This document shows, in pieces, positions 191-56,294 of a stretch of 64,000 nucleotides of DNA. The stretch spans positions 17,639,385 through 17,703,384 of the forward strand of contig NC_092705.1 in NCBI RefSeq assembly GCF_964275005.1, read 5' to 3'. The notes below the pieces were generated by a model. That model ran no database searches. It saw only the letters and a program-made list of their open reading frames with translations, and was not told where the DNA came from. Source of the DNA: Diadema setosum. Its lineage: Eukaryota; Echinodermata; Echinoidea; Diadematoida; Diadematidae. The stretch's first letter is position 1. Each line of letters opens with the position of its first letter. Both the position numbers and the translations under genes were made by a program.

Positions 191-3100
191 AGACCCACAC
201 TCACACACACACATGAGAAAAAATTGTTCATCTTACTATACGAAAATAAAATAAAAGACTATTGAACGAAAGAGCACAAAACTTTCGAAATTAGATAAGA
301 TTGGGCTTTGCCCCTCTTGACTAATCAAGGTAAATAGAATAAAAGAGGGATTTAGAATTATAATCGCAAAGCCCTTTGGCAGTACACTTCTTGTGCACTA
401 AAGGCTAAACGGAGCTAATAAGATATCCTACAATTGATATCATTATAGTTACTATCATTATCATCACTACCGTCAATCGTGTAACTATCATAATTATTAT
501 CATTTCTTTGTGATTAGTCCATAGATCACAACAGTTCCTCTTCAATAAGAAAAAAAAAAAAAAAAAAAAAAAGCTATATCTGTACCCCATAGTAGAAAAC
601 CGGGTTACGGGCGAAAATCCCCCAAGTTTTCCAATTCATGTCGTGATGATATTGCTCGTGGACGTGCTCCCCGAATCCAAAGATGTGATTGGTTGACAGG
701 GCTGCTGAGATCTGGATGAACTGCTCCTCGAAAGTCATGCCACCAATGGTCGTATCAAATCTGCAGATACGAGTAGGGAACAACAGACTTAGGTTCAACG
801 TGACCTTAAAGGTAGGGGTTACCTTTTACAGACCTCCCAAAATGCAGAAAAACATTAAACATGAACCTCAGGGGACTTGTTTCAGCCACTGCTGAGAAAT
901 TTGGAAGTCAACAGTTATGTACAATTTGAATAATGCACAAAACTTAACTACTCAGTAGTTCTGTGTGTCAGCCACACTTAAGCCTTTTTGTTGCAGTCTT
1001 CTGTATTTTTTTTTTATCTATAAACACAAATCTAAAAGTATAAGACCTGATGTAATAACATATATAGAGTGTGTGGCAAGAATGTATATAGAAATGTTTG
1101 TAAGTTTTGATGAACTTACTTCACAAAATATACATGATGGACACACATGCAGTGCATGGGTCTGCAAAGGTAGCCTAGTAATGTACTGGAATTTACGGTG
1201 AGCCCCGAAATAATTCAATTCAAAACCTAACGGTCAACAAAAAACGGACTAAATGTTACCTTCCACTTTCAATACTTTATGGGAGTTTCTAAAATGATAC
1301 TCTCTTCAACATACTGTATTTATACAACTCTTCATTTAAGGCATGCAAATGGGATTCCCTACCTTTAATGAATAAAATTAAACTCAACAAATTGTGGGTG
1401 ATGTTGTCGCAACCACGCAGGAAAATTATAACAGTCGATGGCGTCATTTTCTCCCTACTTTATAGCCCTTACAAAATTACCAATATTTCTGTCAAAAATA
1501 AAGTAAAAGAAACCCTTCGCCTAAAAAAAAAAAGAGACACTTCTGAGACACAAAGATTGAATGAAACAATTAAATTTTGATTGATTTCGCATAATAATGA
1601 AGGTTTTTGTACGCGTCAATTGGGCCATTGTGTAGTGATGACGTCATCACACTCCCGAATGACGTACGTGTATGTATGCGACTGATAAAATTTAGTACGC
1701 GTGAATTGTACTCTATTGAATTTGAAGAAGCTGACATAATGAAGGTTTAATAAGGTCCTTTTAAAAAGCACAAGCATGGCAGAATTGACGATCAAGCTAC
1801 ACAAACTATTTGATTTTTACCAAAAAGTATCCTTACTTCGCATGTACAGTGCTATCATGCAGCACAAAGCCAAGGGATAGCGAGTAGCTAAAGGCTTCAT
1901 ATCACATTGGTACTTGTCAGTTAATTGCTAATAGCTGGTTTGCTAATCATACAGGTTTGAAAAAAGCAAAACTGAAATTCACATCCGGTTAGAAAGGAGG
2001 TCAACTATAATGCAAATAGGCAAAACCGTCACAAAGCATTTTGAACTAGCTTACGGAATTCGCACGAATGAATGTACGAATGAGCTAGCAATCTCATGCT
2101 GTGTTTTCCGCTCCCATTCTCGGAGTGCACATCAGTGTGGAATACGCACACGGACTCACATTGTGATTCCCGTGGAGCGTCTTGTGATCATGACTCCGAA
2201 AGGCATTTCGGTGTAAGTCACATCGTAGAGCGGATCCGTGGGAGGTGACTCCGGGGTAGGAATGTTAACGCTTTCTGGGGGCACTTCGTAACGTGTCGAA
2301 AAAGCATCATATATCTGTATTTACAGACAAAAGAGAATGAATTCAAGGTTACCGTTGGATTATTTTTAGACTTTGCAAAAGCTTTCGATACGATAAATCA
2401 TGACATTTTGCTATATAAATTACAACACTATGGTATACGTGGGTTACCGTTAGAGTGGATGCGCAGCTATTTATCAAATCGATTTCAGTTTGTATGTTAT
2501 GGAAATGAAAAGTCTGCACAACTACCGATTACATGTGGTGTACCACAAGGATCTGTATTGGGACCCACTCTGTTCTTAATTTATATCAACGATTTGCCAC
2601 AATCCACAGATTACTTCAGTTTTCGATTATTTGCGGATGATTCGAGTTTATTTCATTCTTTTTCATCTGGAACTAAGAATATTGACTTAAAGGAAGTTGA
2701 ACATAATTTCTTAGACGTTATGAAATGGTGTAATGCTAACAAATTAACAATCAACACGTCCAAAACAAAGTATATAGTTTTTAAAAGTAAACGTAGACAT
2801 GTGGAGATAAATGGAAATAAATGGTACGCACAGACATTATAGAGCAGGTACATTCGACTTTCTTTCTGGGAGTTAATATAGACGAAAACTTATCGTGGCG
2901 AAAACATATTGAGTGTGTCTCTTCCTCAATGAGGAAAACAATTGGAATCATATTTAGAATTAGACAACTTGTGCCTAGACAAATCTTACAATTATTATAC
3001 AACACTCTTATCCTTCCGCGTATGTCTTATGGACTAGAAGTTTGGGGATGTACATACCACTCATATCTTCAATCTATATTTTTGTTACAAAAGAAATTAG

Positions 3101-3703
3101 TGCGTGCAATCTGTTTCAAAGGACCTAGGGAGCATACTGGCCCTTTATTTCATCGTTTACAAATGCTAGATGTTTACAGACTATACCAATTTGTAATTGG
3201 AACTGTAATGTTTGACCTAATCCATCATACTTTACCGCATGATATCTCTGATTATTGTTTTGAAATTGACCATAAGCATGATACAAGGTTTAAAAATAAT
3301 ATGAATTATAAATCAATAAGAATCAGATCTGAAACAGGTAAACACGCCTTATCATATGCAGGCAGTAAAATTTGGAGAGGATTTCCTCATTATGTCAAAA
3401 AGATAAACACCCGTAATGCTTTTCGGATATCATTGCGAAAATATCTGTTATCAATATAACAATGATCCCCTATGAAAACATGTAAATAATTATGTACTAA
3501 ATTCTTCTGTAAATATTGTAAATACGTTATATTATAATCTATATCATTGAAAGGACTGGCCTCGACTAGCCTGCACGCTATTGCCAGTTCTTTTTTTGCC
3601 AAACTATAACTATTAATTGTTGTGACTTTGTTGACGATGTTTGTTTGTTTGTTTGGTAAATAAATCTCATTTCATTTCATTTCATTTCATTTCATTTCAT
3701 TTC

Positions 3704-12830: not shown

Positions 12831-13301
12831 TCAGAGTTCTGCATCGGCGGGCTTGAAGTCTTCAAATCGTTCCTCCTCCCTTTTTAGGGTGGGGCTATCA
12901 AGGATACCAAGATCCTCGATGTTGTACCTCATCTTGCCGTTCTCCTTTCCTTCATCCTTGCTTTCTCGGATCACCAACATTTGTGTCTGCAGACTGAGAC
13001 GGTGGGCCAGGGGCGGCTTGAAAGACGAGCGAGAGTTAATGATCTTCCGCAGCGGTGTCGGCGGCACGGCTTCCGTGATCGAGATGTTGTCTCCGCTGTC
13101 ATCCCCGTCGTCGCTGTCATCGCTCCAGCTCTTGTCGCTAAGGCGGTCGATGCTGGTCAGCATCTCCAGTTTCTTATTGCTGGCCAGCTTCTCGCGTTTG
13201 AAGAGCTCGAAGGCGGTCTGGTACATGCACGCGATGGCGGTTGCTATTTCCTTGGTTTTGTCGTCCTTGGTGCAGGCCGCTGCATGGACACGTAGGGAAA
13301 C
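12831..13301 (-). CDS. FAM43-like terminal exon C
   Basis: Acceptor TACATCAG at phase 0; 156 codons and TGA. It begins VSLRVHAAACTKDDKTKE and the last PTB helix (YQTAFELFKREK). A long disordered tail follows with an acidic Ser/Asp stretch (SDDSDDGDDSGD) and the FAM43-like TPLRKI motif. GC content is clearly higher than in the surrounding intron. Confidence 0.9.
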   Translation of the reverse strand, partial: VSLRVHAAACTKDDKTKEIATAIACMYQTAFELFKREKLASNKKLEMLTSIDRLSDKSWSDDSDDGDDSGDNISITEAVPPTPLRKIINSRSSFKPPLAHRLSLQTQMLVIRESKDEGKENGKMRYNIEDLGILDSPTLKREEERFEDFKPADAEL

Positions 13302-16300
13302 CTGATGTACACGAAATATTGAAGGAGAAACGTATTATTTTTCTATATGTCATTGATTACTACCTATAACATACATACAACTCTACACGTCACAGTTCTC
13401 ACTAATCAATATCAGTAAATGTAGATAAAGTTTTTTACAAGTTTTATAGAACGGTCATAAAAATGCTGTAGTGTCCACAAAGGTAACATGTCAAACTGGT
13501 TAGAAGTCAGATTGTGTCAGCCATGTATTTGGATGGGTATTGGTGCGTGTTTGTAGGGATTGTGTGCGCGTGTGTGCGTTACCTTCATTTTTGCAATAAA
13601 TGAATGTGTCTGACTTGATGGCCATTGTCTACATGAAATATATGTATGTATATATAGCTACAGAAATAGTGATTCGTTGAGTTTAAACTATTAGAGTTTC
13701 ATGATCTAAATCAAATAAGTATGCGCTCCTATAAATCAAAACATTTTTGACGCAAAATACATCTTCATAAATTGATCAAAGAGTTTTGAGGAAATAGTGA
13801 CCTCATGATAAACTCGAACTCTGAAATAAAGACTTACTCCGTGATGACGCATTTCTGTTATGTAAACATTGATTAGACAGATTGTTGTTGTTTCAGAAAC
13901 CTTGATATTTTTCACAACGCACGCATTGTTAAACTGTCTCTGTTGTGCGTTATTGTTTGTTGTATTGTCTTTCTGTTTTAAAGTTTTGTTTCATTAAGTT
14001 TTGTCTCATTATTTTTTTTTTGTCTCATACCGTTTCCTTTTAGTAATTTTATTGTTGCCCAAGTCTCGTTTCATGTTTATTCGTGTCTGTGTACGTGTGT
14101 CTATTTGTTATTCTGTGTTGTTGTTTTTTTTTCAATGGGCTTCCAGACTTCTTTTTTTTTTTTCTGTCATTGAATGCATCTTTCTATTGCAGTTCTCTAC
14201 CAGAAGGGCCCACATTCTTTGTACAAACTTTGCTCTTTGGTGGGTCCCTTCATTTTCAAACTTAAAGGCAGCCGGTCGTCGCAGGCGATTCGCAGCTCAG
14301 TAGAAAAGCACGACAAGCTGCTCCTCCCGTTATTGTACCCCCGTGCGTACCGAATGCAGAACACGACGCTACGCAGCGCACCAGCGAAAACCTGATGGGG
14401 CACGAGCGCGCCGTGCGAGCTGTCCACTGTAATTTCAACATGGACGCCCGAATACCTACCGAATGGGGCCGAATGGGTGCATGCACAAAACCGCACAACA
14501 GCCATGCGCATGAAAATCTCTCCCGGTCCGCGACACAACAAGTAGTGAGAGCTGTCGGGTGTACGTACGTACGTATCTGGCTCCAGTCTCTGTTTATATG
14601 CACTATGGTGCCAATTTCAGCAATCTAGGCAATAATATTTAAAAATGTCTGAAAATATTATATAACAATATCATAAATTATTCATATATTACGTTGTTTA
14701 ATATTTGGTATTTATAAATATGCTTTGATGAAGAAATATTAAAACTCTAAGCTTCATGTATAGCAAGTTGCAATGCATATGGCCATATGGCAGGTTGTTA
14801 TGATCTCATCGTGCAATGTTTTCTGCTGCGTCAGCTGCATGTGTTATACGTACAGCTTACAGTACGTTGGGCCGGATCGTAACATAACAAAGTTGATAGA
14901 AAGTCGTCGGTACCGGTATGTCAGTATCAATATTGTGTGTGGTATGCGAGTACTGTTTGCAATAAAAAGTGCTGTACTGTTTCGGCTTAGCCTTGGCTTT
15001 GGTTTAGTAATGAAACCTCACAATGGAGATCAAACAGCCGTCCAACTCGAGGCAACGTATCTACTTGTTTAACGCTATCGACGAGTGGAGAACGCAGAGA
15101 GACATGTTCTTAGCTGGAGGACAAGTAAGAGACCAGAGGGGGAGGCTTCAGCGTTAGCGTGCCGATGAAAAATTTACTTTCCACTTGCTGGAGTTGCATG
15201 AACAGTTTTGCAGGAATTTTTATTTAGAATGTGCAAATTCGTGTTACGACATGCACGGTGGAATTGTGTTGCCACGGCTTACGCCAATCAAGCAACCCCA
15301 GCTGGCCAAGTCAACAACTTCAAGGAATCCAGATCCAGATGATGTGTAAGTAGAAGTCTACACATGAATCAGTGATTGAAGTGGAATGACTTTTTCTAAT
15401 CTAGTATCAGTAACTTTAGGGCATTTGCGTTTGATCGACAAGTAGGCCTATTTTTCTATGTATAATTCCGCGTTCTCATTTATGTCAAATTATGATAATG
15501 CCGTAATTGAAATGACATTTGCTGGGTCAGTTTAATGTCATTAGTCCCATTAAATGAGAAGTTTTTCATATCAATCATGTTATGCAAATTCCCCAAGAAT
15601 ATGATTGAGGATTTGCAAATAAATAAAAAAAAATGAATAGATCTATCGCAAGCTCCATCATACATGTAGTCTAACCCAATAGATCTGGTAGAACTCTAAC
15701 GTTTAAACAGGGGAACTAAAGGTTCAAAGATGACAGATCTAACAATAATAGATTCTAGTTTAGGCCCTACTTCGACTTGAAGGTATGTCGGTTGCTGCAC
15801 GGCCCCCTTCTATCACGGCCACAGTTACACTGTGCAGTGCAACTGTGGCCGTTGGCCCTGCACGGGCACAGTCGCTTCCCCGTCCTGAATTTACACACGC
15901 CAGGGCAAGTATGGTTGGACCTACTACTAATCGACCGCCTGATGTTTATCTGCTTGATAAGAATATTTAACACTGAAATTCACGTAAAAAAAAACTTGAC
16001 CTACGTGATTGAGAAAATCCAGCTCTATCAAATGCCGTTGTTCCGTTTTCGATTCGAAGTTTCAGTGCAAAAATATCGCCGACGAACTTGCGTGGCCTCG
16101 TTTCAGCTCCCCGCGGTAAATCGTGTTATTAGGATCGACCGCTGTTTTTGCATTGACAATGCACGCAAACCGAGTTGTATTGAACACCGTGTTGTACGAA
16201 GCTTTTTAGAAGCCTTTTAGAAACTTCCATAGACATTACATTGTGCTGTCATTACGATTCGGTGAAAATATTCATTCGAAATTTTGTCCTTGATTAAAAC

Positions 16301-43489: not shown

Positions 43490-43791
43490 TCACAAAATGT
43501 CGTCCAGAGCTTGCTTGAAGCGGATAATCTCCCTCAGAGACTTCAAGCCCAGCTCGTTTTTCACCTCCTTGTAAAAGAACTCCGGCGCGTCGGATGCGAT
43601 GGTCTTCAGTCCAAGAATCCCCTCGCCGTCATAACCCTCTAGGCGATTTTTCAACTCCGTTAGACTGTTCCTCGTCAACCATGCATTTACGTCATCGTTT
43701 GTCCAGTTTGCCGCATTCTTCGCACTGACTGCTTCCCGCTTGGACAACCGCTTCGAATCGTTGCGCCTGATTTTCACCGCGAGGTTACTTT
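43490..43791 (-). CDS. ARM-TIR-SAM exon 12 (SAM-like domain and stop)
   Basis: Acceptor CTTTCAG; phase 1 in, ends at TGA. After a basic stretch (KIRRNDSKRLSKRE) comes a five-helix SAM-like domain beginning NWTNDDVNAWL, with YDGEGILGL and LGLKSLREII at the positions usual for SAM helices. The protein ends ALDDIL. I did not locate a polyadenylation site. Confidence 0.9.
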
Positions 43792-46700
43792 CTGAAAGAG
43801 AATGAAGACGAAAACTCATGGAGGTTGGGATGCTTGATATCACAACTCTCTACAGTGTAGGCCTATTTGATCCATTCATATATTATTTGCATTGTAACTC
43901 TGACTTCATTATCTAAATATGTCTATATTGGTTTGCGAAATGCACCTGCCGTTATTAGAAGAGGGTGTTGACAAATTCAACATTGAGGGTTGCTACGTCA
44001 CTTAATAAGAATGTTGCATTCGAGTCAAAGCAGGACCTCTCCATATCTCTGGAATTACTGATCTATCAATTAAAAGACTTGGCGCTGATCAAAACTGATG
44101 CTTTCCCCAACTTAAGATAAGGATGAAAATGAAATCCATACTAAAAAGACTGAAACTTTGTAAATTTTAGTAGACATTACTCAATGAAGAGATCAGGTTT
44201 GTTCACATGCCCACAGAATTCATAAGCAATCAACGAAAATACAGAATAAAGATCATAAACAGAATTTGTTCAAAGTGATTTACGATTTTGAATGCTGAAT
44301 GTGCGCAAACTGAATGCCCCCCCCAAAAAAAAAAAAAAAGATAATAATAATAATAACAATGAATAAATGAAATAAAATATAAAAATAAGTATTTGAACTC
44401 TGGAATAGCGGTATTGCGCAAATCGAGTGACCAGGGCAAATTCGAATGACACAAATTCAGATTTGATTAGTATATATAGGAATATGAATGCGCAAAAATG
44501 TTGATTTGAACGATAAATCCATTGTAAACGACAAAGAGGGTGGGGAATACTGAAATCTTTTTAAGTGATATGGAGACACATCATAGCATGAACTTAAAGC
44601 TTATTAACAGGTGAAGCTAACCATTAAGGGTCTTTAAATTCTCACCTCCAGTGACGGATAGATGACGAGGGATGGAGGTGGAAGGAAGACGACCTCGATT
44701 AGCCAGTTCTCGCTTGAGCCTGTCGACGTTGTCGACAACCTCGTCCATGGTTGCCATGGCAATGTAGTATTTGGTACCTAGCATGATGCCCAGCCAGCCG
44801 TCTGCCTCGTAGTCCGTCTGCATTTTGAGCGGGACGATGGGTTTGTTCAGTTTGAACGTGTACTCGGCCTCTGCGTTTTGGGGAAGAAAAGTTCGCATGG
44901 CATTAAAGAGGAAAGACAATAAATTTTCATTTCACTCGGTTTTGAGACTTTTACGTCGTGGACAAAAACTGGAAAATAACATGATATTGCTTAAAAAAAG
45001 AAGAAGATTAAAGTTCATTCATATCATAGCCAGCTGCAATACATTATCAGAAATGAATCAATGTTCATGATGCATGAATGTAAGAATGGGTGTGTGTAGT
45101 TTTCTGCTAACACATTTAATGTTTGTTTTGTAGATCATAATTCTATTCATTGGACTGCTACAATTTAAAAGAGGTAAATTGCGTCTGTTTGAAGGGTATT
45201 TCAACCGGGAACTACTCGCGCGGTCTTTCAAATGCGCGTTTCTCACGAATAAAAAGAGATTCAAATATATTAAATTAGTTCCGCATCCACGTTTTTTGTC
45301 GCAACATCGAGCAACTAGGTCTCATTTGATCTATTAACCTGCCGAGATTCATTTTGTGTAACCAAGACGGGCATGCAGTTTGTTTTTTTTTTCAGTCGTT
45401 TTAATTGCCTTGACTTTTTTTCATTAAGGACTAGTAGCCTGCTGAGAAACATGCACACTGAGAAACGTTGTGTTGGCTGTGTGCGTGTGTGTGTGTATAT
45501 ATGTGTGTATGTGTCTGTGAGCTTTAAAAAGTTATTGTTGACACTGCCGCCGCTGACATCGACGCTGACGACGACGGAAAAAAGGTCACCTATGTCTCGC
45601 TTCCGCTGCACAGGCGAGACAAAAAAAGAAGAAGAAGAAAGTACGGCAACTCCCAGGAAAACAGCTCCCGGACAAATTAGCACAAGCACCCAGAGATTTT
45701 TATGCTTGAAAATAACTACCCCCAAACAACTACCCCTTTAGGACAGTTACCTTGGGGTGATTATCCTGGGGGAAATTTTCCTTCAAAGAGTAGTTGCTTT
45801 AGAGTAATTGTCCTGGGAGTAATTGATCTGGGAGCGGGCATAGGTGTTCTAGGACTTAGTTGTCTTGGTGGAAATTGTCTTAGTATTTATCCCAGGGTAG
45901 TTGTCTTGGAGATACTCGTCCTGCAGGTCATTGTCCTGCAACTTGCCCTAGGAAATAATCCAGGGGTTGTTATCCTAGAGGTTACTACCCTCGAGGTAGT
46001 TATCCAGAGGGTAGCTTCAAGTTTTTTTTCTTTTTTTTTAATAAGTTTCCTTAAAATCATAAAATTTACAGAGTGCAGATATTGCAATTTATATACTAAT
46101 CGTAATAACCTATTGTATTTGAAAGTCAGTAAAGGAGCCTATTGCTTTGTGTAGAAATTAGATCCTATGTAAGTTACACAGATTATGAAAAAACATGTAT
46201 TTTTGCTGTATTTGATGATTTGAATGAAATCAAACATGAATAAAAAAAAAGTTACATGTCAGGAATCTATGAGAATATAAGAATTAATTAATTATGTCAT
46301 ATTTATCATCCTATATTCCTGGTAATGTGTAGCACAAAGAGAATTAAGTGTTTGTGTATTGCGTATTGTCAATGATATAAATATCTATAACATTCACATT
46401 AACATAGGCAATTATACGATATAAGTGATAAATTCTTTGAAGCTCTTCTTAAGTGACGCATATCAATAACACATCTTCTGAACACTATGCTATACAAATC
46501 AAGAAAACACCATGGTCATCACTTCAACCTACCTGTTCTGCAGGCCGGGCTATTCTTGTACTTCTCTGAGAAACAGATGAGGACCACCGCAGCATTCTCC
46601 ACGGCAGACGCCATCGCCTCCAGGGTAGAGCCGCCTGCGGGAAGGCAAGGCAGAGCACGTTGAGAACACATGGAAGCTATAAACTTGTAAAGTGGTGTGT

Positions 46701-48579
46701 CATGAGGCTGTTGGTGCAAGCTTGAAATGAGGTTAGCTCTCTCATGGTTTATTGCGTGAATCTAATTGTTTCCGAAGGACAGATTAGAGATACCAGTGCT
46801 ATCTGAGAAATGAAGACTGAGAGATGATGGAAGACTGAGGGACGAACAGACGTGACAGCAACATTTCTGTTGACATGAAAAGAAGATGCATAGCACTCGT
46901 CTACCTAAAATACATGAACAGTGGCCATCATTCCACTGGTTCCCAAACTAGGGAAACTCCAAATACCACTATGACAGGTCTAGGGCAATTACCCCCTGGG
47001 CAATTACCCCGGACCCTTCCCCTGGCCCTTATCCTAGTCCTAATCCTCATCCTGAACCTAATCCTAACCCTAACCCAAACTCCTGCTAACCCTAAACCTA
47101 ACCTTTACTCTAACCTTACCACTAACCAGTATTTAGCCGGGGAAGGGGGGGGGGGGGGGTAATTGCCCTCGGGGGGTAATTGCCCGGATGACATGTACGA
47201 GCAACATTGCAAAACTTTGCTGTTTGTTGTTGTTGTCATATCTTGTGTCATTCTAACATAAAACAAACTTGTTAAAGCAAATACGCTGATATTGACAAAA
47301 TTCCACTAATGGCATATGGAACAACGCTGAAGAGAAAGGCTAATATTAGGGAGCTTTAGATTTTAGACGCGCGGACGTTCAAAGGAAAAAAAAAAACAAA
47401 AAAAAAACAAACATGTTCTGAGCGTGCGCAGAAGCGCGGGTCAAGTTGACGCACGCTTCTGCGCACGCTCAGAACATTTTTTTTTCCCTCTGAACGTCCG
47501 CGCGTCTAAAATCTAAAGCTCCCTATTGTTGACTCCGTGAGTATGTAGTAAAATTTCAAAGCTAATAGCGCCCTCTTGAGGGGAACGTACTCACCCATTT
47601 GATCGACATCCATCCAGACTTTGTATCCATCTGCTTGAAGCAGCTCTTTCACTTTCAGTATCTGTTTTTGAACGTCCCACTGGTAGCTAAGCATCACATG
47701 ATTAGTACTGACTTCCTCTTCATCGTCGTCGTCATTGTAGAAGACGTCCCCGACCTCGTTATCGTGTTCGACAGAGTGTTCGGGAGACTGCTTGCTGCTA
47801 GAATTACCCTCATCGCCCGCTGCCGAGTTACCCTCCTTTGCGTCCAGCTTAAACTTCCGAGAGGGGTCTTTTGACTGTAGCGGTAGAAAATCATGTAAAA
47901 ATGAGAGAACTAGGGTTAGAGTCAATAACTGCTTGTTTCCTGTTTTGTTTGACCTGTTGTGTTACCATTTCTTATTCTTCTAAAGCATCGGCGGTCCTAA
48001 CAATCAGAATGAGCAACTATATTTTGCTCAGGATAAGTTCGCAAACAGTGTTTTCTGCATTGCAGCATCATGTTCCGTTTTCACGTAATAATTCTGCTTT
48101 AGAATTTGATGTGGCATGTCCATGGCCTCTGAGTGATGTATTTGTGCTCATCATTTTTGTGTTAATGTGGTGAGTGTAATCATTCGTTTTCCGACTAAAT
48201 TATGTTCAAAAATTCAAAGTCGACCTACATAAAGATAATGATCCGCTCCTTTGTGTACTAGTTTGTATGTAACTCGGCCTACCTTTTTCGTAAGCGTTGC
48301 GTGCGTCTCTTCCCCAACGTTCCAGAGAATGGCTTCGCACGGACGTGACAGTGCCGCATGAGTCTTGCACTTCCTCACCACTGAAAATAATTCATAGTGA
48401 ACATTCTTGCTATGATTTGTAAGACACGTGTATACATTCGTCTATTTCTTTTTTCAGTTCATTCCAACAACGTTACAGTCAAATCATTCACTGAGGTATT
48501 CGAAGTTAAAATGTATACGTTCCATGTGATTATCTTTTTTTTTCTTCCTCACATCATTAATTTTCTTGAACATATATAA

Positions 48580-48626
<47 letters not shown>

Positions 48627-49482
48627 TCATTCAAAACATTCCTAGACTTTGAAATTTTGACGGGGGATAACTGAAATGCAAACATTACGTTATCAAAATT
48701 TCTTCTTTTTTTTCCTGTACTCTTGTTTTCTAAGTTTTACTGTCTGGCCTTACCAGGTTATGGCGAAGATTATTATACCGTGCTTCTCCTACACGATTGC
48801 AACAATAGGGAATAAATGGAAAGGGTCTCACTTTGAAGGCAACCTTCCTCCTTCAGAATTGCACTTTGGTTAGACGGGTGGAATGAAAGTATCCATAGCA
48901 CCTCTATCGCGCTTCGCTGTTCCTCGAGGGGGTTTTCGTCGGACATCATTGAAACGATGCGTGAAAGAGCGCCGGCAGTAATGAATTTTACCTGGATGGA
49001 AAAAGGATTGAGGAGCGAGCCTGGTTTGGTATGTAATGAGACACATTAACATTATGTAGTTGGTAGCATCTTCAGTGACCTTTCATCGCGTTAACGGGAT
49101 ATCATACATTACAAAGTGCTTAGTTCTACCCCTCTCTACATTTACCCGTATTTCCCTTCCATTTCGTAAAACATTCACTTCTCCTCTTTCGAAATCCACC
49201 TCCGAATACTAAACTACTCTCTGCCCCTTTGTGTTTATCTGAAGTTATTTGTTTGCATTCTTTATCTACGTTACTCTCATTGTTGTTCCTTTCATTCAAT
49301 TATTAACTTCACCTTCGGTCTCCATCTCAAACCTATCATGAACTTTGACACCAGAATAATTATGTTCGGGGAAAAAAGAGACCACTCACCTGTTTCTATA
49401 CCACAATCTTATCTAATGATATTTCATTTCGACTGAACGTCTTGAAATAGTAGTAGCAACAGTACTAGTAGTGGTTGTGATG

Positions 49483-49525
<43 letters not shown>

Positions 49526-52500
49526 CAGTAGTAGTCGTCGTCGTAGTAGTAGTAGTTGTGATAGTAACAGCAGTAGTAGTAGCAGCAGCAGCAGCAGCAG
49601 CAGTCTCACCATCGATGATTATAGAATCCACTGATCATATTGCAAGTATCATTTTTATTATAACCATCAGTGTTGTTGGTAATTAAATGATGATGATTAC
49701 GATGATAAGTGTCATCATCATTATCTTCATTATTGTTATTATTGTAATTATCATTATATCATTATAACTGTCATCGTCATCATCATCATTATCACCATCA
49801 CTGGGAGTGATAGTATCATCTGTATTGGTACGAGCATCATTGCTTTTGATTTACTATAGTAATTTACCTTGTTGTCGTCGTTGGCGGCAAGATACTTCAT
49901 AGCATCGGCAACCTGGATGGAGGAGAAATTGTAGTGTGCCGAGTAGTGATTTGGTTCGTTCAGGGCCTTGCTCAGGATCTTCACGATGAAGTCGATGTTA
50001 GTGTTGGTTGTGTTGAGGTGCGCGTTCTCATCCTCTGTCACAATGAAGGCTAAAATGAAAATAGCCTTGGAAAATGAAAATAGACAGAAAACAAATACGT
50101 TAACACCCCTCCTCATCTCCTCACTACTTAAAAGAGAGAAAAAGTAAACATTATGCTCCTTAGATGTAATGAACTAGTCGTAAATGAAAGCGTAATAAAT
50201 CGTTTAACTGGCTGAAATTGAATTAAAAAATGCAACTACACAAGCACTCGGAGAGCGCAGACCTCCTCCAAGACAGCGACTCATTTCCACCCTACACGCA
50301 TGCAATTCCCCCATTACAGACAATGATAGAAACCTTTGTTTACGTCGTCAGCTTCCAACTGCGCGGCGCCTCGCTCGCTCAAGCAGAGTACACGTTTTAT
50401 GGTACGAATGCAAACCTAAAGTACGCCCAGCTTGAATCCCCAAGTTCATTGAACCTATATGCCAAAAGGTTAAAAAAAAAATCCTTCAAAAATGCATGCA
50501 AATTTCCTGGATCACTACCGCAATTTAATCATCTGTTCATTGTGTCGTTATCGACTTTTCCTGCAAGTTTCATTCAAGTCCGATCACAATTTTTTGAGTT
50601 ATTTTTGCAAACATACAAACAAACCAACGCCGATGAAGACATAACTTCCTTCCTTTGGGGAGGTAATAATCATACTAAAAAATGGCGTAGACTGACATCA
50701 CTCTAAAGTTGATTTATATCTATAAAAATGGCCACAATTTCATTATTGGCCTCACCTCTTGCGTTTAGACGAGAATTGTCAAACTACAGATGTAAAATGT
50801 CATTTATGGATTTTGAAGTTGACAATAGTAAAATTGATATAGTGGAACACCTTCCTAGAATTATGACACACACACACACACACACATACACAGTAACAAG
50901 TGATCAAACAAATACGTGTGTTGACGAGAGTTCGCAAGCTTACCTTGACCCGCAGGATAAGAAAGCGGCACTTAAGGTATGGCTTGAGGACCATGGTGGC
51001 GTGGTTCTCTCGGAAAATCGACTTGTTGTCCATGTGATGCCTAACAGTGGTAGAAACAATAATTTCGTTCATATTTCTTTCCGCTGATATCAAAACAGAA
51101 TATTGCATGAACTAATGATCACCTCTTGTGCATGAGATCATCATTACTGATGAGATCAATACTGTGTATGAGTGTCTGCGTGCATCAATTAGAGAACTGA
51201 TTAATGATTACTCAAACATACACATTTACACAGATACGTTTGCAATATATATTATCGATACAAACGGACACACAGACTGAATAGGAAATTGATGGATGAT
51301 AAACGAAACTAACAGATGTGATACTCAACAGAAGAACAATTGCAACTGATTGACAAATTGTCCGACATCGACGTACATTTACGTGGATGTAGGGCAATTT
51401 GTCAATCAGTTGCAATGAAAACATTTCGATCGAAGAATTTCATGAATTTGAAGAAGAATAATTACTTGCAATGATAAACGGAAAAGAAATGAAAGAAAGA
51501 GTGACGAGTAAGGAATGAGAGATGAAGGGTGAGGGGAGAGGGGTGAAGAGTGAAGAGGTATGAGAGAGAGGGGTGAAGAGTGAGAGATGAGGGGTGAGGG
51601 GAGAGGGGTGAAGAGTGAAGAGGTATGAGAGAGAGGGGTGAAGAGTGAGAGATGAGGGGAGAGGGGTGAAGAGTGAGAGATGACGGGTGAGGGGAGAGGG
51701 GTGAAGAGTGAAGAGGTATGAGAGAGAGGGGTGAAGAGTGAGAGATGAGGGGAGAGGGGTGAAGAGTGAAGAGGTATGAGAGAGAGGGGTGAAGAGTGAG
51801 AGATGAGGGGTGACGAGAAAGGGGTGAAAAGTATGAAAGGATGGGTAAGGGTAAAGGACGCTGTCCGTAACGTACCTGATGCAGTGGTAGAGCACTGTGA
51901 GAACACGCTTGAGGAACTCTCTCCTCGACATCCATCGCAGCTTCTTGCTATCCATATTGAGAGCGTCCACGGAGTAGAAACGGTCGTGGAGAACGGCAAG
52001 GAGAGCAGGCACACACAGCTCGCCGATCTGCTGGCAGAGCTGGTCATCGGCTACTGTAAAGCCCTGTGTGGCATCCAGCAGCAGGTTGATGGCGAGGTAC
52101 GAAGCTGGGTTCTCGATCTGACAATTTGAGGAGAGACAGAGAGAGAAATTACTTTAAAAACATAGTGATTACTGGCCTACCCGATAATGCTGGCTATGGC
52201 GAACAATGACAAGAACTAACCTTTAACGCTGAAAACATTGCACCAGCGTCAATTACGAGATACAAAGAGAGAGAGAGAGAGAGGGCTTGAGAGAAAGAGA
52301 GGGAGTTGGGGCAGTGAAAAATATGCAGCCACAGACAGACAGAGGAAGACAATTTTTACTTTTAACTATTGTATGTCAGAAACGGCATCTGACAGGACGT
52401 TATCGTTGTAATGTCACATGTCATCTTGATCCCCCAACTTTGAGCGTTAAAAAGAGCTATTCTGTTTTTAATCATGAAAAGGAAACACTTGCTATGCTTT

Positions 52501-55500
52501 AAAATTTTGATGTCGATCATATATTATAGAGATTATAGAAGGATACGATTCTTTCTTTAAACTTGATTTCGACATTCTGCAGACATTATCATTCTTTTCA
52601 TCGTAATTAGATCCAGTACGTTAAGGATATGAGAAGCTTTTGTAAAAAAAAAATAAATAGATAAAAAAAAAATAATAATAATAATATTGATAATAACAAT
52701 AATTAATAATAATGAATAAGTAACAACAACATCATCCAAAAATTCTTTGTACAAGAGATCCCCAACTACACATTTGTGAAACAATGTCTCCGATTTCTAG
52801 GGTGTGAAGAAACGCAGCACACGCACATACACGCAAGAAATAATGTGTTGTTTTTTGTTTTCTTTTACACAGTCGGGCTTAAGGCGGAGAAAGGAAGAGT
52901 GTGCCTTCAACGAGTCACTCACCAGATCATTTACGTCATCTTCGTGCAGCTTCTCCCAGATCTGCAGGAAGAGCCTGGCGAAGCCGAGCTCAGTGACCAG
53001 CTCGACGTAGTCGGCTTGTCTAACGTCACTCAATTTGCAGAGGACGAGAAGACAGTGGAGTTCCTCGTTGCCTGTGTACGAGTCGGCCTCGTGGAGTTTC
53101 TTCATTGTCTCACGGAGTTCTCGCTTTTGCTGGTTCATGAATAGACATAAAAAGTGTACTTCCAACAACTGATCCTCTAAACTACAGCGATAGTTTTACT
53201 TATCTAATTATATCTTTTAAAAAGAATTCTGACTTTTCTTCCGCTGTAGCAATAAAAGTCCAAACCGTTAAACTGATAATCTTAACAGGCAGGATTTAGT
53301 GATACATTTGCAGTCATTGTGAATTTTCTCCCATGTTCCTCCAGTAATTGTTAAAGTAAGGGAGTATCTATTATGGTAGTACTATCTGGAGTGTAGTTCC
53401 TGCCACAACAAAAGTATAGACAACACACACTCTTCCGATAATTCTGTTTCACTTCTAATTATCCGTTAGGTTATTACATATTCCGGTGCGTCAGCATTTC
53501 ATTTCAGAGAAGACGATAATTTAACCCAAGAGCCTTGCAATTTAAACCTCACAACTAACAATTATTCGTGATACTATTATTGTTATTATCATCAGTATTG
53601 CTATCATAGTTATGCCCATTACAATTATCATAATGATAAATATCAATATTATCATTTATTTATCTATTTATTTATTCCGTTTTATTTTCACAGGGTAGCC
53701 CTTTCAGTTACAAAACTGATTTACAAAGGGGCCCTGCATAAAAACAATACAAAATACAGTACATACAAAGTTGAATACAGAAGTATACAGTAAGTCCCCC
53801 AAAAAGGAGAAAAACACCACACATAGCTTACAAACTCAATACAAAATTTTGGAAAAAAAAAATGTCTGCACATGTATAAAATGCTAAATTACAAGTAAAT
53901 ATCAATAAATCATTAATACAATCATTATCAATTTTGTCATTACATTATGGACACATTTGACTGAAAACAACGAGAATAATAAGGTGGACGATATCAATTA
54001 ATACGCGTGCCCATAAAATACACGCACGCGTAAATACCGCATATTTAAAGGTGATATAACAGATGTTCGCGTAGAAATAAACATTGTATTTGATGGCAAT
54101 AAAGAACTGTATTACGTGTGTACCATGGTGAAATGATGACGTCATACCTCAATCTTCATGGTTTCGTCAGGCATTACGACTCGCTCCCCACGGCTACCCG
54201 TCTCTGTGGCCCACGTGAGGTAGTCGTTGAAGACCTTAAACTTGGCCTCGCTGAACTTGGTCTCCGAGTAGGTCCCTTGTCGATGAATCTCCTCGAGTCT
54301 GGCAAATCGCTCCTCATCCGTCATTGTTGACGACGGCTCAACACACTGTAGGTACAGATTGAGACAAGGGAAGATTAATGGAAAGGGCTTTACAAAATAT
54401 GTGATGACTTTCCCATGAAATACAATGTTATATCAACTTCGCACGTATATAAAACACATACCAAATTACATAATTATACTATTGATATTGCAACCACCGT
54501 GCTGCAAATTATTGCCTTTAAATAATGAAGAACTCACTTGGTTCATAGTCACTTTCCCCTTACGGCAATTTCTCAAACACCTAGGTAGCGGGTTTACAAT
54601 CTTCCACGGCGTACAATTCATGTCCATGATGTGTCTCCTTTTCCATAAGCAAGTGCGCTTATTTACATCGGCACGACTTTTATATAATGAGGAATGACTA
54701 ACTATCAGAGGGGATCTCACACGATCACGTTTTCTTGTGGTCATCCTCGTAACAGGCCACGGGGCTTCGACTGCGTATTCGACGTAGTGTAACTATGGAC
54801 AAAGGAAGTCAATGAACTAAGGCGGAAGTAAGACCTCGCGTTAATTGACAGACCTCAACCTAATTTTGCGTTCAACTGCAGGCTCTCACATCTGGTGCCT
54901 GGTTTGTTTTGATGACTTTTCTCGGAATGAATATTGCATGGAGTGAAAGACCCGCTCTATCTGCGTGCGTTTGGCTCGGGTGTCGCTCCTTTTCTTATTT
55001 TGTTTTGTTGTTAACATTGGCAAGCTAACATGCAATGCGGACAACTAGAATTTTTTTTTTCTACCTTGACAAAGACTACATATGTTGTACTATACGTGCC
55101 TACCTGGTATAGGCAGAAAAACACGTCGAAACCAACTTGCTTCATGCTACCACATAATTTATAAACAATCCACACGGCAAACATTAACAAGTGTTTTTGT
55201 CGTGGGAGCAAAATAAAATTTACTTCCAGTGTGTTGTCTGTCAATATTACAATTATATGGTTTACAAACTCTTTCCTTTCAAACCTAATTACACCGGAGA
55301 GGATGACACTAATACTTTGCAAGTTGGTGTTAGCCATAAATAGAATGAATCTATTGAACATACATTTTTTTTTTAGCTTGATAGTAATAATCGCTTCATA
55401 GAGGTTAATTGTTACACAGTTTAATCATTTTTGTCCCATTCATTGCATAGGGCATAGCCTGAAGTACTCGAACGGATCCTGCACTTCAAAGTCTCTTTTT

Positions 55501-56294
55501 CTTAATGAACATATTTCTTAAGGCTGTACTTTCTTTCCTTTATTTTGATGTGTTATAGGGAAGTCAATTTGTATATGTGATTTTAGAGTCTGCTCTTACA
55601 GAGTTCGACCTTGTAGCTAAGAATTCACAAAATGGTGACCTTTCTAGTGGTTTTGTGATGCAGTCTCACATATTATTTGGTTACATGCATGAAAGGCTAG
55701 CAGAAGAAATGGAGGACTGGAAAAGAAGAGGAAAAAAGTTATTATACAGCTGACATTGCTAAGCAGGAAGAGCCTGCTGAACTTTCTGAGGCGGAGCTTG
55801 TTTTATGTCAAAATCTGATTCGTTTTGTTTATGATATGTCTGCCATATAGTCCATCCCAAGAACATTCCATATTTCCACCTTCAAACAATATCTATCACT
55901 TGCAAATATAAAGCACAGTACATTTGACGCTGACTGACCCACCAAAAAAAATACATACCTGCTCAGCGTTTTCCAGGCTCAGTTCAGCGTTCGATGCCAG
56001 CGAGTTCCTGTCCTTGTCTTCTCCGTCGTCATCCAGTTCAGCGTCCTCGGCGACCGTATCAAGTTTAGCCACAGGATGACGAGGTTCATCATACTCATTC
56101 TCGTCCACACTTTCGAAGTGTAGTGTATTGGGGACGTTAATTGTTTCTTGTGGGGGACCCTTGGCTACAATATCCTTCCTGCTAAAGGCCACTGTCTCGC
56201 GGATGGCGGTGCCTTCGGTGGATTTCTCCGGAGGTTCCTCCTCCTTCACTTTCGCTGTCACTACCTGTGAGGACTTACTCGAGCCACTACCCAT
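43490..56294 (-). CDS. ARM-TIR-SAM protein, N-myristoylated type (complete, 12 coding exons, 810 aa)
   Basis: Exons on the minus strand, in order: 55959-56294, 54148-54345, 52923-53129, 51876-52117, 50944-51040, 49868-50065, 48844-48991, 48283-48380, 47595-47874, 46533-46634, 44646-44870, 43490-43791. All introns are GT-AG, all phases agree, and the total is 2433 nt including TGA. The start MGSGSSKSSQ fits the myristoylation rule (Gly2, Ser6). Layout: acidic low-complexity region 1-112; helical ARM/HEAT-like region about 180-508 (e.g. EVLWILSFHPSNQSAI); acidic linker DDDDEEE; TIR about 566-690 (HVMLSYQW, KVWMDVDQM, VVLICFSEKYKNSPACRT, KPIVPL, GWLGIMLGTKYY); SAM-like about 740-800. In my hand alignment Glu636 (ACRTEAEY) falls where SARM1 has catalytic Glu642. 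SARM1 is ARM-SAM-SAM-TIR; this order is different. By family knowledge such TIRs cleave NAD or scaffold immune signalling; the activity here is inferred. Domain calls are by eye. Confidence 0.9.
44646..44870 (-). CDS. ARM-TIR-SAM exon 11 (end of TIR)
   Basis: Acceptor AACGCAG and donor GGAG|GTGAGA; 225 nt, phase 1 at both ends. It encodes EAEYTFKLNKPIVPLKMQ and then YEADGWLGIMLGTKYY, features seen in the C-terminal half of invertebrate TIR domains, followed by a helix (VVDNVDRLKREL). Confidence 0.92.
45700..46012. repeat. Degenerate short-period repeat (GTAATTGTCCTGGGA-like)
   Basis: Units of about 20 bases such as GTAATTGTCCTGGGA and GTAGTTGTCTTGGAG, in ARM-TIR-SAM intron 10. It gives a spurious open frame. 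Confidence 0.7.
46533..46634 (-). CDS. ARM-TIR-SAM exon 10 (TIR core)
   Basis: Acceptor CCCGCAG and donor AACAG|GTAGGT; 102 nt, phase 1 at both ends. It encodes GGSTLEAMASAVENAAVVL and ICFSEKYKNSPACRT. The last base is the first base of the Glu636 codon. It could be skipped without a frame shift. Confidence 0.92.
46980..47189. repeat. Element with GGGCAATTACCCC ends and CCTAA-type core
   Basis: Left CTAGGGCAATTACCCC and right GGGGTAATTGCCCG are mirror images. Between them lie variant CCTAAT/CCTAAC hexamers and a G run. In ARM-TIR-SAM intron 9. Confidence 0.75.
47349..47523. mobile_element. Fully palindromic MITE flanked by TA
   Basis: Outer arms 47349-47381 and 47491-47523 are a perfect 33-bp inverted repeat (GGGAGCTTTAGATTTTAGAC...). 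Inner arms 47413-47436 and 47454-47477 are a perfect 24-bp one. TA on each side fits a Tc1/mariner-type target. Between ARM-TIR-SAM exons 9 and 10. Perfect arms suggest recent activity. Confidence 0.92.
47595..47874 (-). CDS. ARM-TIR-SAM exon 9 (linker and start of TIR)
   Basis: Acceptor GCTACAG and donor ATGG|GTGAGT; 280 nt, phase 0 in and phase 1 out. It holds a Ser/Glu-rich linker with DDDDEEE and then the first TIR strand and helix (HVMLSYQWDVQKQILKVKEL) and the second strand (YKVWMDVDQM). A TA-flanked inverted-repeat element lies 69 bases downstream of its donor. Confidence 0.92.
48283..48380 (-). CDS. ARM-TIR-SAM exon 8
   Basis: Acceptor TTTTCAG and donor AAG|GTAGGC; 98 nt, phase 1 in and phase 0 out. 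It encodes RKCKTHAALSRPCEAILWNV, the last clear ARM-like helix (CEAILWNVGEE) before the linker. Confidence 0.85.
48584..48625. repeat. (AT)n microsatellite
   Basis: A TA run in ARM-TIR-SAM intron 7. Confidence 0.95.
48844..48991 (-). CDS. ARM-TIR-SAM exon 7
   Basis: Acceptor CCATCCAG and donor GAAG|GTTGCC; 148 nt, phase 0 in and phase 1 out. It encodes a textbook armadillo unit: FITAGALSRIVSMM, then EVLWILSFHPSNQSAI. The donor lacks a purine at +3, so it is weaker than its neighbours. Confidence 0.87.
49447..49602. repeat. (GTA)n/(GCA)n trinucleotide array
   Basis: An interrupted trinucleotide array in ARM-TIR-SAM intron 6. It is open in several frames but low complexity. Confidence 0.95.
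49868..50065 (-). CDS. ARM-TIR-SAM exon 6
   Basis: The acceptor is TTTTCCAAG with a strong pyrimidine tract; the donor is AAG|GTAAAT. 66 codons, phase 0 at both ends. It encodes AIFILAFIVTEDENAHL and IDFIVKILSKAL, solenoid helices. A second AG 16 bases downstream (50049) would break the frame, so the upstream AG was chosen. Confidence 0.85.
50944..51040 (-). CDS. ARM-TIR-SAM exon 5 (97 nt)
   Basis: A short exon found by phase matching: acceptor CTGTTAG and donor AAG|GTAAGC, phase 2 in and phase 0 out. It encodes 32 whole codons (HHMDNKSIFRENHATMVL and on), consistent with one ARM helix pair and joining in frame to exons 4 and 6. Confidence 0.82.
51339..51416. repeat. Perfect 22-bp hairpin
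   Basis: 51339-51360 is the exact reverse complement of 51395-51416 (ATTGCAACTGATTGACAAAT...). A weaker inner palindrome around CGTACATTTACG continues it. ARM-TIR-SAM intron 4. Confidence 0.9.
51519..51832. repeat. Purine-rich minisatellite, composite unit of about 55-65 bp
   Basis: Near-identical subunits GAGGGGTGAAGAGTGA, AGAGGTATGAGAGAGAG and GAGATGAGGGG. It is purine on the plus strand and pyrimidine in the transcript. It ends about 43 bases from the donor of exon 4. Confidence 0.95.
51876..52117 (-). CDS. ARM-TIR-SAM exon 4
   Basis: Acceptor TTGTCAG and donor CAG|GTACGT; 242 nt, phase 0 in and phase 2 out. It encodes ARM-like helices (IENPASYLAINLLLDATQ; ELCVPALLAVLHDRFYSV). The donor sits about 40 bases from a long purine/pyrimidine minisatellite in the following intron. 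Reading through the donor into that repeat gives a spurious long Ser/Pro/His frame. Confidence 0.88.
52923..53129 (-). CDS. ARM-TIR-SAM exon 3
   Basis: Acceptor AACCAG and donor CTG|GTGAGT; 69 codons, phase 0 at both ends. It encodes two helical hairpins typical of ARM/HEAT solenoids (GNEELHCLLVLCKL; VTELGFARLFLQIWEKL). Confidence 0.88.
53650..53960 (-). repeat. LINE 3' end, reverse orientation
   Basis: On the minus strand: GGGCCCCTTTGTAAATCAG, GTAACTGAAAGGGCTACCCT, then GTGAAAATAAAACGG and a (AATA)n-like tail. This is typical of a CR1/L2-group 3' terminus; no coding part seen. ARM-TIR-SAM intron 2. Confidence 0.55.
54148..54345 (-). CDS. ARM-TIR-SAM exon 2
   Basis: Acceptor CTACAG and donor GAG|GTATGA; 66 codons, phase 0 at both ends. 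The peptide is charged and helical (MTDEERFARLEEIHRQ). An internal Met at 54324 could be an alternative start that would lack the myristoylation signal, but the in-frame join to exon 1 favours the longer protein. Confidence 0.85.
55959..56294 (-). CDS. ARM-TIR-SAM exon 1 (residues 1-112)
   Basis: Begins with ATG GGT AGT GGC TCG AGT, giving MGSGSS, a good N-myristoyltransferase substrate pattern. The rest is charged and probably disordered, with acidic stretches (ELDDDGEDKDRN). It ends at CAG|GTATGT in phase 0. No recognisable domain. Membrane tethering is inferred from the N-terminal motif only. Confidence 0.9.

What the first reader, a model, noticed from the sequence alone, without database searches (positions are those of the whole stretch)
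43490..56294. SARM1-like parts in a different order: myristoylated ARM-TIR-SAM protein
The sequence shows a complete 12-exon gene whose protein has a MGSGSS start, ARM-like solenoid, TIR and C-terminal SAM-like domain. SARM1 is ARM-SAM-SAM-TIR. Here the TIR sits between ARM and SAM, and the protein begins with a lipid-anchor motif instead of the SARM1 mitochondrial-targeting N-terminus. If the ARM region restrains the TIR and the SAM multimerises it, this would be a membrane-bound NAD-cleaving switch built independently or by shuffling. Novelty cannot be judged without a search.
Basis: partly seen in the sequence, partly recalled or inferred. Interest (0 to 1): 0.8.

Follow-up and report, generated by a model that had tools for sequence, protein, structure and literature searches.

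The report
Ancient rearranged cousin of SARM1
An almost certainly sea-urchin gene encodes a protein with the same kinds of parts as the axon-killing enzyme SARM1 in a different order; its relatives run from corals to lampreys and fishes, and it is predicted to be a membrane-anchored switch that likely cuts NAD, an activity for which our literature searches found no test.

The parts
55959..56294 (-). Exon 1 (aa 1-112): start codon, MGSGSSK N-terminal myristoylation-type motif, disordered acidic region
   Evidence: motif conserved in P0001 and P0002; in the P0001 model pLDDT <50 for aa 1-116 apart from one residue
56274..56294 (-). Codons of the MGSGSSK motif (predicted N-myristoylation site, G2, S6, K7)
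   Evidence: sequence; PROSITE-like pattern MG[^EDRKHPFYW]..[STAGCN] in 28 of 61 cluster representatives and 28 of 65 named proteins
54148..54345 (-). Exon 2 (aa 113-178): start of helical region
52923..53129 (-). Exon 3 (aa 179-247): ARM solenoid; acceptor chosen by homology (in-frame acceptors at 53168 and 53174, among others, also possible)
51876..52117 (-). Exon 4: ARM solenoid
50944..51040 (-). Exon 5: ARM solenoid
49868..50065 (-).
48832..48991 (-). Exon 7: ARM solenoid
48283..48380 (-). Exon 8: ARM solenoid
47595..47874 (-). Exon 9: acidic linker and first part of the TIR domain
46533..46634 (-). Exon 10: middle of the TIR domain (GSTLEAMA helix to CRT); ends after the first base of the catalytic-position glutamate codon
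44646..44870 (-). Exon 11: C-terminal part of the TIR domain and linker
43490..43791 (-). Exon 12 (aa 715-814): linker, SAM domain, stop codon TGA
44692..47703 (-). TIR domain (aa 570-699) spread over exons 9-11; catalytic-position Glu640 codon is split by intron 10 (46533 | 44870-44869)
   Evidence: TIR_2 4.5e-19, 69.6 bits; E640 in 51 of 51; aligns with SARM1 E642
43499..43741 (-). SAM domain (aa 732-812)

Best explanation
This is a gene of an ancient animal family of ARM-TIR-SAM proteins, predicted to be tethered to a membrane by an N-terminal fatty acid and likely to cleave NAD+ once its C-terminal SAM domains, as we infer, bring TIR domains together. The proposed cycle: the ARM solenoid senses a ligand or partner and holds the TIR apart at rest (inferred from SARM1); release lets the SAM, which resembles ring- and polymer-forming SAMs, cluster neighbouring chains at the membrane (inferred); the clustered TIRs, which keep both acidic positions whose mutation kills SARM1's NADase, hydrolyse or rearrange NAD+ (inferred), so that the cell is either depleted or given a nucleotide signal. 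Shown here: gene structure, domain order, family breadth, conserved acidic positions, predicted SAM fold. Not shown: lipidation, restraint, assembly, catalysis, biological role.
Against: The glutamate alone is not diagnostic: a TIR of the same genome that I read as a Toll-like receptor (leucine-rich repeats, membrane span and TIR, by eye) also has it, in SEWCMYE (L012), and such TIRs are usually scaffolds (recalled). No Trp stands four residues before the Glu as it does in SARM1 (W638), Cat1 and L012: that position is N, S, A, P or G in 51 of 51. One SAM, not the tandem pair that forms SARM1's octamer. The lipid motif is missing from 37 of 65 named relatives (some starts are probably mis-annotated), including all four vertebrate rows and the four closest urchin paralogues in the tree, which needs at least 12 changes of this trait. 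Foldseek E-values for the SAM model are weak (best 0.052, none <= 0.001). The AlphaFold output gave no inter-domain confidence that could test ARM-TIR docking.
Confidence: 0.5

Rival explanations
1. A membrane-bound scaffold: the TIR recruits other TIR proteins (Toll-like receptor or MyD88 type) and has no enzyme activity, much as the myristoylated adaptor TRAM does.
For: TRAM shows that a myristoylated TIR adaptor exists (passages of PMC3594740); the Glu is also found in a receptor-like TIR of the same genome (L012); no Trp four residues before the Glu.
Against: Both acidic positions needed by SARM1 are conserved in 51 of 51 aligned relatives, and the Glu motif is intact in 11 of 11 vertebrate entries, together with an invariant GWLG and CRxE signature; the TIR profile matches Cat1, two SEFIR entries and two TIR-1 entries, and no receptor TIR, at E <= 0.01.
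Confidence: 0.3
2. A rearranged SARM1: the gene arose by moving SARM1's own TIR and SAM exons around.
For: Same three kinds of parts; the SAM model is closest to SARM1 SAM1.
Against: In the TIR tree the 31 family TIRs plus L029 are one side of a starred branch (96/95) and the two SARM1 TIRs form another group (99/98) (91 columns and long branches, so not final). Single SAM. The architecture is already present in cnidarians.
Confidence: 0.06
3. A gene-model artefact: exons of neighbouring genes joined by the reader.
For: No RNA evidence here; two acceptors ambiguous from sequence alone.
Against: Collinear, gap-free match to an annotated protein of another assembly (15 of 814 differences), 72% identity over the whole searched region (aa 120-803) to Lytechinus pictus, and the same three domains in the same order in 65 of 65 named relatives. 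The public models are themselves gene predictions, so they are not RNA proof.
Confidence: 0.02

Closest known systems
SARM1 / C. elegans TIR-1 (NAD+ hydrolase)
   Different: Order ARM-TIR-SAM instead of ARM-SAM-SAM-TIR; one SAM; TIR on a different branch; myristoylation-type start instead of a mitochondrial signal; no Trp four residues before the Glu
Invertebrate 'ARM-TIR' proteins (oyster PMC4346834; Aplysia PMC9334734, 11 in its Table 5) and ecTIR-DC families (Gerdol 2017, not held; known here only through passages of PMC6836662, PMC6321704, PMC5549309)
   Same: ARM plus TIR outside the Toll receptors; probably (inferred) includes members of this family, since Aplysia and Crassostrea proteins are among the hits
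   Different: The passages seen give no C-terminal SAM, lipid motif or tested function for these; ecTIR-DC is described as apparently absent in vertebrates (PMC6321704 passage), whereas this family is present in lampreys and fishes
Amphioxus TIR-SAM hybrid gene (model Brafl1_131196, PMC2575513)
   Same: TIR and SAM in one transcript, listed with a cDNA in that paper (passage)
   Different: Listed only as a domain pair; whether it has ARM repeats is not stated in the passages seen
Coral 'SARM-like' proteins (PMC10236652) and actiniarian novel TIR architectures (PMC5094078, Fig. 2)
   [quoted passage not shown] the Fig. 2 legend mentions SAM among the domains
   Different: Only passages (and section 11 of PMC5094078) were seen, not the figures; no order, lipid motif or test is given there
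Group 18 TIRs (PMC7075850) and uncharacterised animal TIR clades 10-13 (PMC13142454)
   Same: Taxon range (cnidarians, molluscs, echinoderms, lancelet, green algae for group 18) fits this family
   Different: Assignment of this family to them was not tested; section 5 of PMC13142454 says that its clades 10-13 have not been characterised
TRAM/TICAM2
   Same: N-myristoylated, membrane-interacting TIR protein (PMC3594740 passages)
   Different: TIR at the C-terminus and an adaptor in TLR4 signalling; no ARM or SAM (recalled)
Cat1 (CRISPR-associated TIR)
   Same: Best solved match to the TIR profile (1.1e-5), shares the CxxE pattern
   Different: Bacterial (recalled), filament assembly by its PDB title, no SAM known (recalled)
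Vac8
   Same: ARM solenoid, matched here by sequence and fold; acylated N-terminus (recalled)
   Different: No TIR or SAM (recalled)

Membership tests
SARM1 | Domain order ARM-SAM-SAM-TIR | tested here: not met
   ARM 118-513, TIR 570-699, SAM 732-812; same order in 281 of 286 relatives
SARM1 | Tandem SAM domains | tested here: not met
   One SAM only in the model; 2 of 286 relatives gave more than one SAM stretch (P0012, P0140, not looked into)
SARM1 | TIR domain belongs with SARM1 TIRs | tested here: not met
   Separate starred branches 96/95 and 99/98; only two SARM1 TIRs, 91 columns, long branches
SARM1 | Catalytic glutamate (E642) and acidic E596 position | tested here: met
   51 of 51 and 51 of 51
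SARM1 | SAM of the SARM1 type in particular | tested here: inconclusive
SARM1 | N-terminal mitochondrial targeting signal | tested here: inconclusive
   Starts MGSGSSK followed by an acidic disordered region; no targeting predictor was available
SARM1 | NAD+ hydrolysis, octameric ring | not testable with these tools
   needs purified protein
TIR domain (Pfam TIR_2) | Score above the curated cut-off | tested here: met
   69.6 bits against cut-off 28; TIR_2 at E <= 0.01 in 51 of 51 relatives
SAM domain | Profile and fold | tested here: met
ARM repeat solenoid | Profile and fold | tested here: met
N-myristoylated proteins | N-terminal MGxxxS/T-type motif | tested here: met
   MGSGSSK; 28 of 65 named relatives; the pattern itself is recalled
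N-myristoylated proteins | Attached myristate | not testable with these tools
   needs labelling or mass spectrometry
TRAM-type TLR adaptor | Myristoylated start with the TIR at the C-terminus | tested here: not met
   ARM before and SAM after the TIR
ecTIR-DC families (Gerdol 2017) | Published family definitions | not testable with these tools
   paper not held

The most novel reading that the evidence does not exclude
Early animals carried two separate SARM1-like NAD-cutting machines: SARM1 itself, and a membrane-anchored ARM-TIR-SAM enzyme whose TIR has a different origin. The second, kept from corals to lampreys and several fishes but not seen under any tetrapod, insect or nematode name in our lists, is an overlooked branch of animal TIR immunity or cell-death control.
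Probability: 0.4. Interest if true: 0.78.

Novelty: new variant of a known kind. Interest (0 to 1): 0.52.

Why it matters
SARM1 is the animal TIR NADase that is studied most (recalled), and its logic (ARM restraint, SAM assembly, TIR catalysis) looks like a one-off. A widespread second protein with the same parts, a TIR on another branch and a lipid-anchor motif would show that this logic was reached in more than one way, and would offer a membrane-located comparison for how restraint and clustering control TIR enzymes. It may also be a concrete, testable member of the uncharacterised animal TIR clades that a 2026 preprint (PMC13142454, section 5 read) calls likely overlooked because routinely studied organisms lack them; that assignment was not tested here. 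Family members in vertebrates (lampreys, gar, eel, lungfish) bring the question within reach of vertebrate work.

Tried and rejected
Rejected: (1) Exon-6 acceptor 50032 and an 803-aa product, replaced by 50065 and 814 aa after comparison with P0001 and P0002. (2) A bacterial source for this TIR: one scan of genome contigs gave 25 pattern stretches, 1 confirmed (L029, a 3.3-kb contig of a Planctomycetota MAG). Its ARM-like and TIR reading frames are separated by what looks by eye like a GTGAGT-type intron, so I read it as eukaryotic contamination; the scan used two short peptide patterns only. (3) A gene-fusion artefact (see rivals).

Led nowhere: SARM1 in the same genome could not be checked, because the genome search answered once and then never again. 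A BLAST of the C. elegans TIR-1 segment against ORFs of the loci then held (L001-L029, which cover only part of the 42 places listed) found no match at E <= 1e-3. So 'SARM1 coexists with this gene here' is not shown. In the full-length Foldseek list SARM1 chains do appear (7anw_A, rank 4, E 1.8e-5) but with TM-scores under 0.3 and rmsd over 20, among ARM proteins of like E-value, so I did not count them as a whole-chain match; SARM1 is absent from the 50 VIA rows, which excludes nothing. Literature: ten searches (one search was a format error); passages of 15 papers were seen, and no whole paper was read. Gerdol 2017 and Zhang 2011 are not held, so priority of the architecture in print cannot be excluded. 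No arthropod, nematode, tetrapod or cartilaginous-fish name was seen in the three best-120 lists, which hold many unnamed sequences; this is not proof of loss.

Full report
Gene. The minus strand of the window encodes one gene of 12 coding exons from 56294 to 43490. All introns are GT-AG. Exon 3 and exon 6 each have more than one in-frame acceptor; the annotated proteins of Diadema antillarum (P0001) and Lytechinus pictus (P0002) select 53129 and 50065. The result is 814 aa, aligned without gaps to P0001 with 15 of 814 differences, so the window very probably comes from a Diadema-like urchin (the source is unnamed; the assembly is 912.7 Mb).

Relatives. Protein searches (best 120 of 248, 233 and 524 hits listed, 286 different proteins in all) find relatives in echinoderms, hemichordates, amphioxus, tunicates, lampreys, ray-finned fishes, lungfish, molluscs, annelids, nemerteans, a brachiopod and cnidarians. 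With profiles built from the family, ARM, TIR and SAM stand in this order in 281 of 286 proteins, in 65 of 65 named ones, and in 11 of 11 vertebrate entries (the profiles include some of the same proteins). Ten vertebrate species names appear: Petromyzon, Lampetra, Lepisosteus, Protopterus, Anguilla, Aldrovandia, Megalops, Huso, Polypterus and Arapaima. All 11 entries from them keep CRTEAEY, and 9 of 11 show the simple W....V..WL SAM-start pattern. A tree of 65 named proteins (45 species labels), chosen by me from the lists, splits them at a starred branch (SH-aLRT 99). One side (29 rows) holds cnidarians, some chordates and ambulacrarians, spiralians and all four vertebrate rows, with Diadema P0079. 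The other (36 rows) holds the window gene's group, with ambulacrarian, amphioxus, tunicate and spiralian rows. Support is SH-aLRT only and the root is by midpoint. Diadema antillarum has at least four members: P0001, P0003, P0005 and P0079.

Lipid motif. The window protein and P0001 start MGSGSSK, and P0002 starts MGSGTSK. By the pattern MG[^EDRKHPFYW]..[STAGCN] (PROSITE-like, recalled), 73 of the 120 listed hits, 28 of 61 representatives at 70% identity, and 28 of 65 named proteins with 20 of 45 species labels carry it, including all 7 cnidarian rows of the tree. Four further representatives have such a start within the first 25 residues. It is absent in 37 of 65, including the four vertebrate rows and the four closest urchin paralogues, and the tree needs at least 12 changes (shuffled mean 21.2, 0 of 500 as low). 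So the anchor motif is recurrent and clustered, not universal. No background rate of the pattern was measured.

Enzyme question. Glu640 is invariant in 51 of 51 and lines up with the Glu of C. elegans TIR-1 and human SARM1 E642. The SARM1 E596 position is D or E in 51 of 51. PMC7688312 (passages) states that substitutions at E642 or E596 abolish SARM1's NADase. Against this, no Trp stands four residues before the Glu, as in SARM1 W638 (the position is N, S, A, P or G in 51 of 51), and a receptor-like TIR of the same genome also has a Glu at the site (L012), so the Glu alone does not prove an enzyme. The TIR profile's five solved matches at E <= 0.01 are Cat1 (1.1e-5), two SEFIR entries (0.0012 and 0.0015) and two TIR-1 entries, one a chimera (0.0025 each). 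One oddity: the catalytic-position codon is split by intron 10.

Relation to SARM1. In a tree of 43 TIR segments (91 columns) the 31 family TIRs plus L029, which falls among them, form one side of a branch at 96/95, and the two SARM1 TIRs another group at 99/98. The tool warned of long branches, and four other urchin TIR rows are nearer to the family than SARM1 is, with weak support (86/74). This argues against a reshuffled SARM1 but does not settle deeper relationships. Whether this genome also has SARM1 was not shown, because the search tool stopped answering.

What is in print. Passages seen: oyster 'ARM-TIR' proteins (PMC4346834); Aplysia ARM-TIR genes, 11 in its Table 5 (PMC9334734); an amphioxus TIR-SAM combination listed with a cDNA (PMC2575513); ecTIR-DC families said to be widespread in invertebrates and apparently absent in vertebrates (PMC6321704; also PMC6836662, and PMC5549309); [quoted passage not shown] a mixed TIR group 18 from cnidarians, molluscs, echinoderms, lancelets and green algae (PMC7075850); and uncharacterised animal TIR clades with SARM1 in a separate clade 8 (PMC13142454, section 5 read). 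PMC5094078 (passages; section 11 read) describes other novel TIR architectures in sea anemones and names SAM in a figure legend; the figure was not seen. Passages of PMC11797021, PMC8260672 and PMC12373286 did not bear on this architecture. None of what I saw names ARM-TIR-SAM with a myristoylation motif or tests its activity, but Gerdol 2017, the likeliest place, is not held.

Mechanism and verdict. The best-supported reading is a membrane-tethered, ARM-controlled, SAM-clustered TIR protein that likely cleaves NAD+. Probability is about 0.5 for the enzyme reading and 0.3 for a scaffold. Shown: gene, parts, order, breadth, conserved acidic positions, predicted SAM fold. Inferred: anchor, restraint, clustering, catalysis and role. 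It is a new variant of a known kind: SARM1-like parts, another order, another TIR lineage, ancient and, as far as the searches went, untested.

Noticed in passing
window 2249-3456 (+): Reverse-transcriptase reading frame (RVT_1 4e-24 for 2249-2839) followed by an overlapping 212-aa frame (2821-3456) with no Pfam match: looks like a decayed non-LTR element.
   Followed up: partly
window 12834-13334 (-): Exon-like frame with a phosphotyrosine-interaction domain (PID_2, 3.2e-8): part of another gene.
   Followed up: no
window 47342-47530: Nested inverted repeats (54-nt arms 93% complementary, 40-nt arms 90%) in intron 9, resembling a small inverted-repeat transposon.
   Followed up: no
window 51516-51836: Minisatellite (periods 21 to 93) in intron 4 just after exon 4; a trinucleotide run also lies near 49465-49620 in intron 6.
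   Followed up: no
window 46533 and 44869-44870: The codon of the invariant catalytic-position glutamate is split by a phase-1 intron.
   Followed up: partly
L029 (1-3309): Contig filed under a Planctomycetota MAG encodes an ARM-like plus TIR protein of this type with a probable spliceosomal intron (GTGAGT donor near 1837, by eye): probably a contaminating eukaryotic microbe, which would put this ARM-TIR pairing outside animals.
   Followed up: partly
G000 C4 about 41.97 Mb and C7 about 24.09-24.15 Mb (L001-L005, L009-L011): Clusters of a second TIR type (FLSYQWDHQ...GGGDQL) in the same genome, on a separate branch from the family.
   Followed up: partly
L026 (G000 C14 19812238-19813578): TIR exon close to that of paralogue P0079 (two differences over about 46 residues, by eye), so this genome has at least one further family member.
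   Followed up: no
public records P0026, P0070, P0155, P0174: UniRef labels some family members 'ADP-ribosyl cyclase' or 'NAD(+) hydrolase SARM1', apparently automatic names.
   Followed up: no
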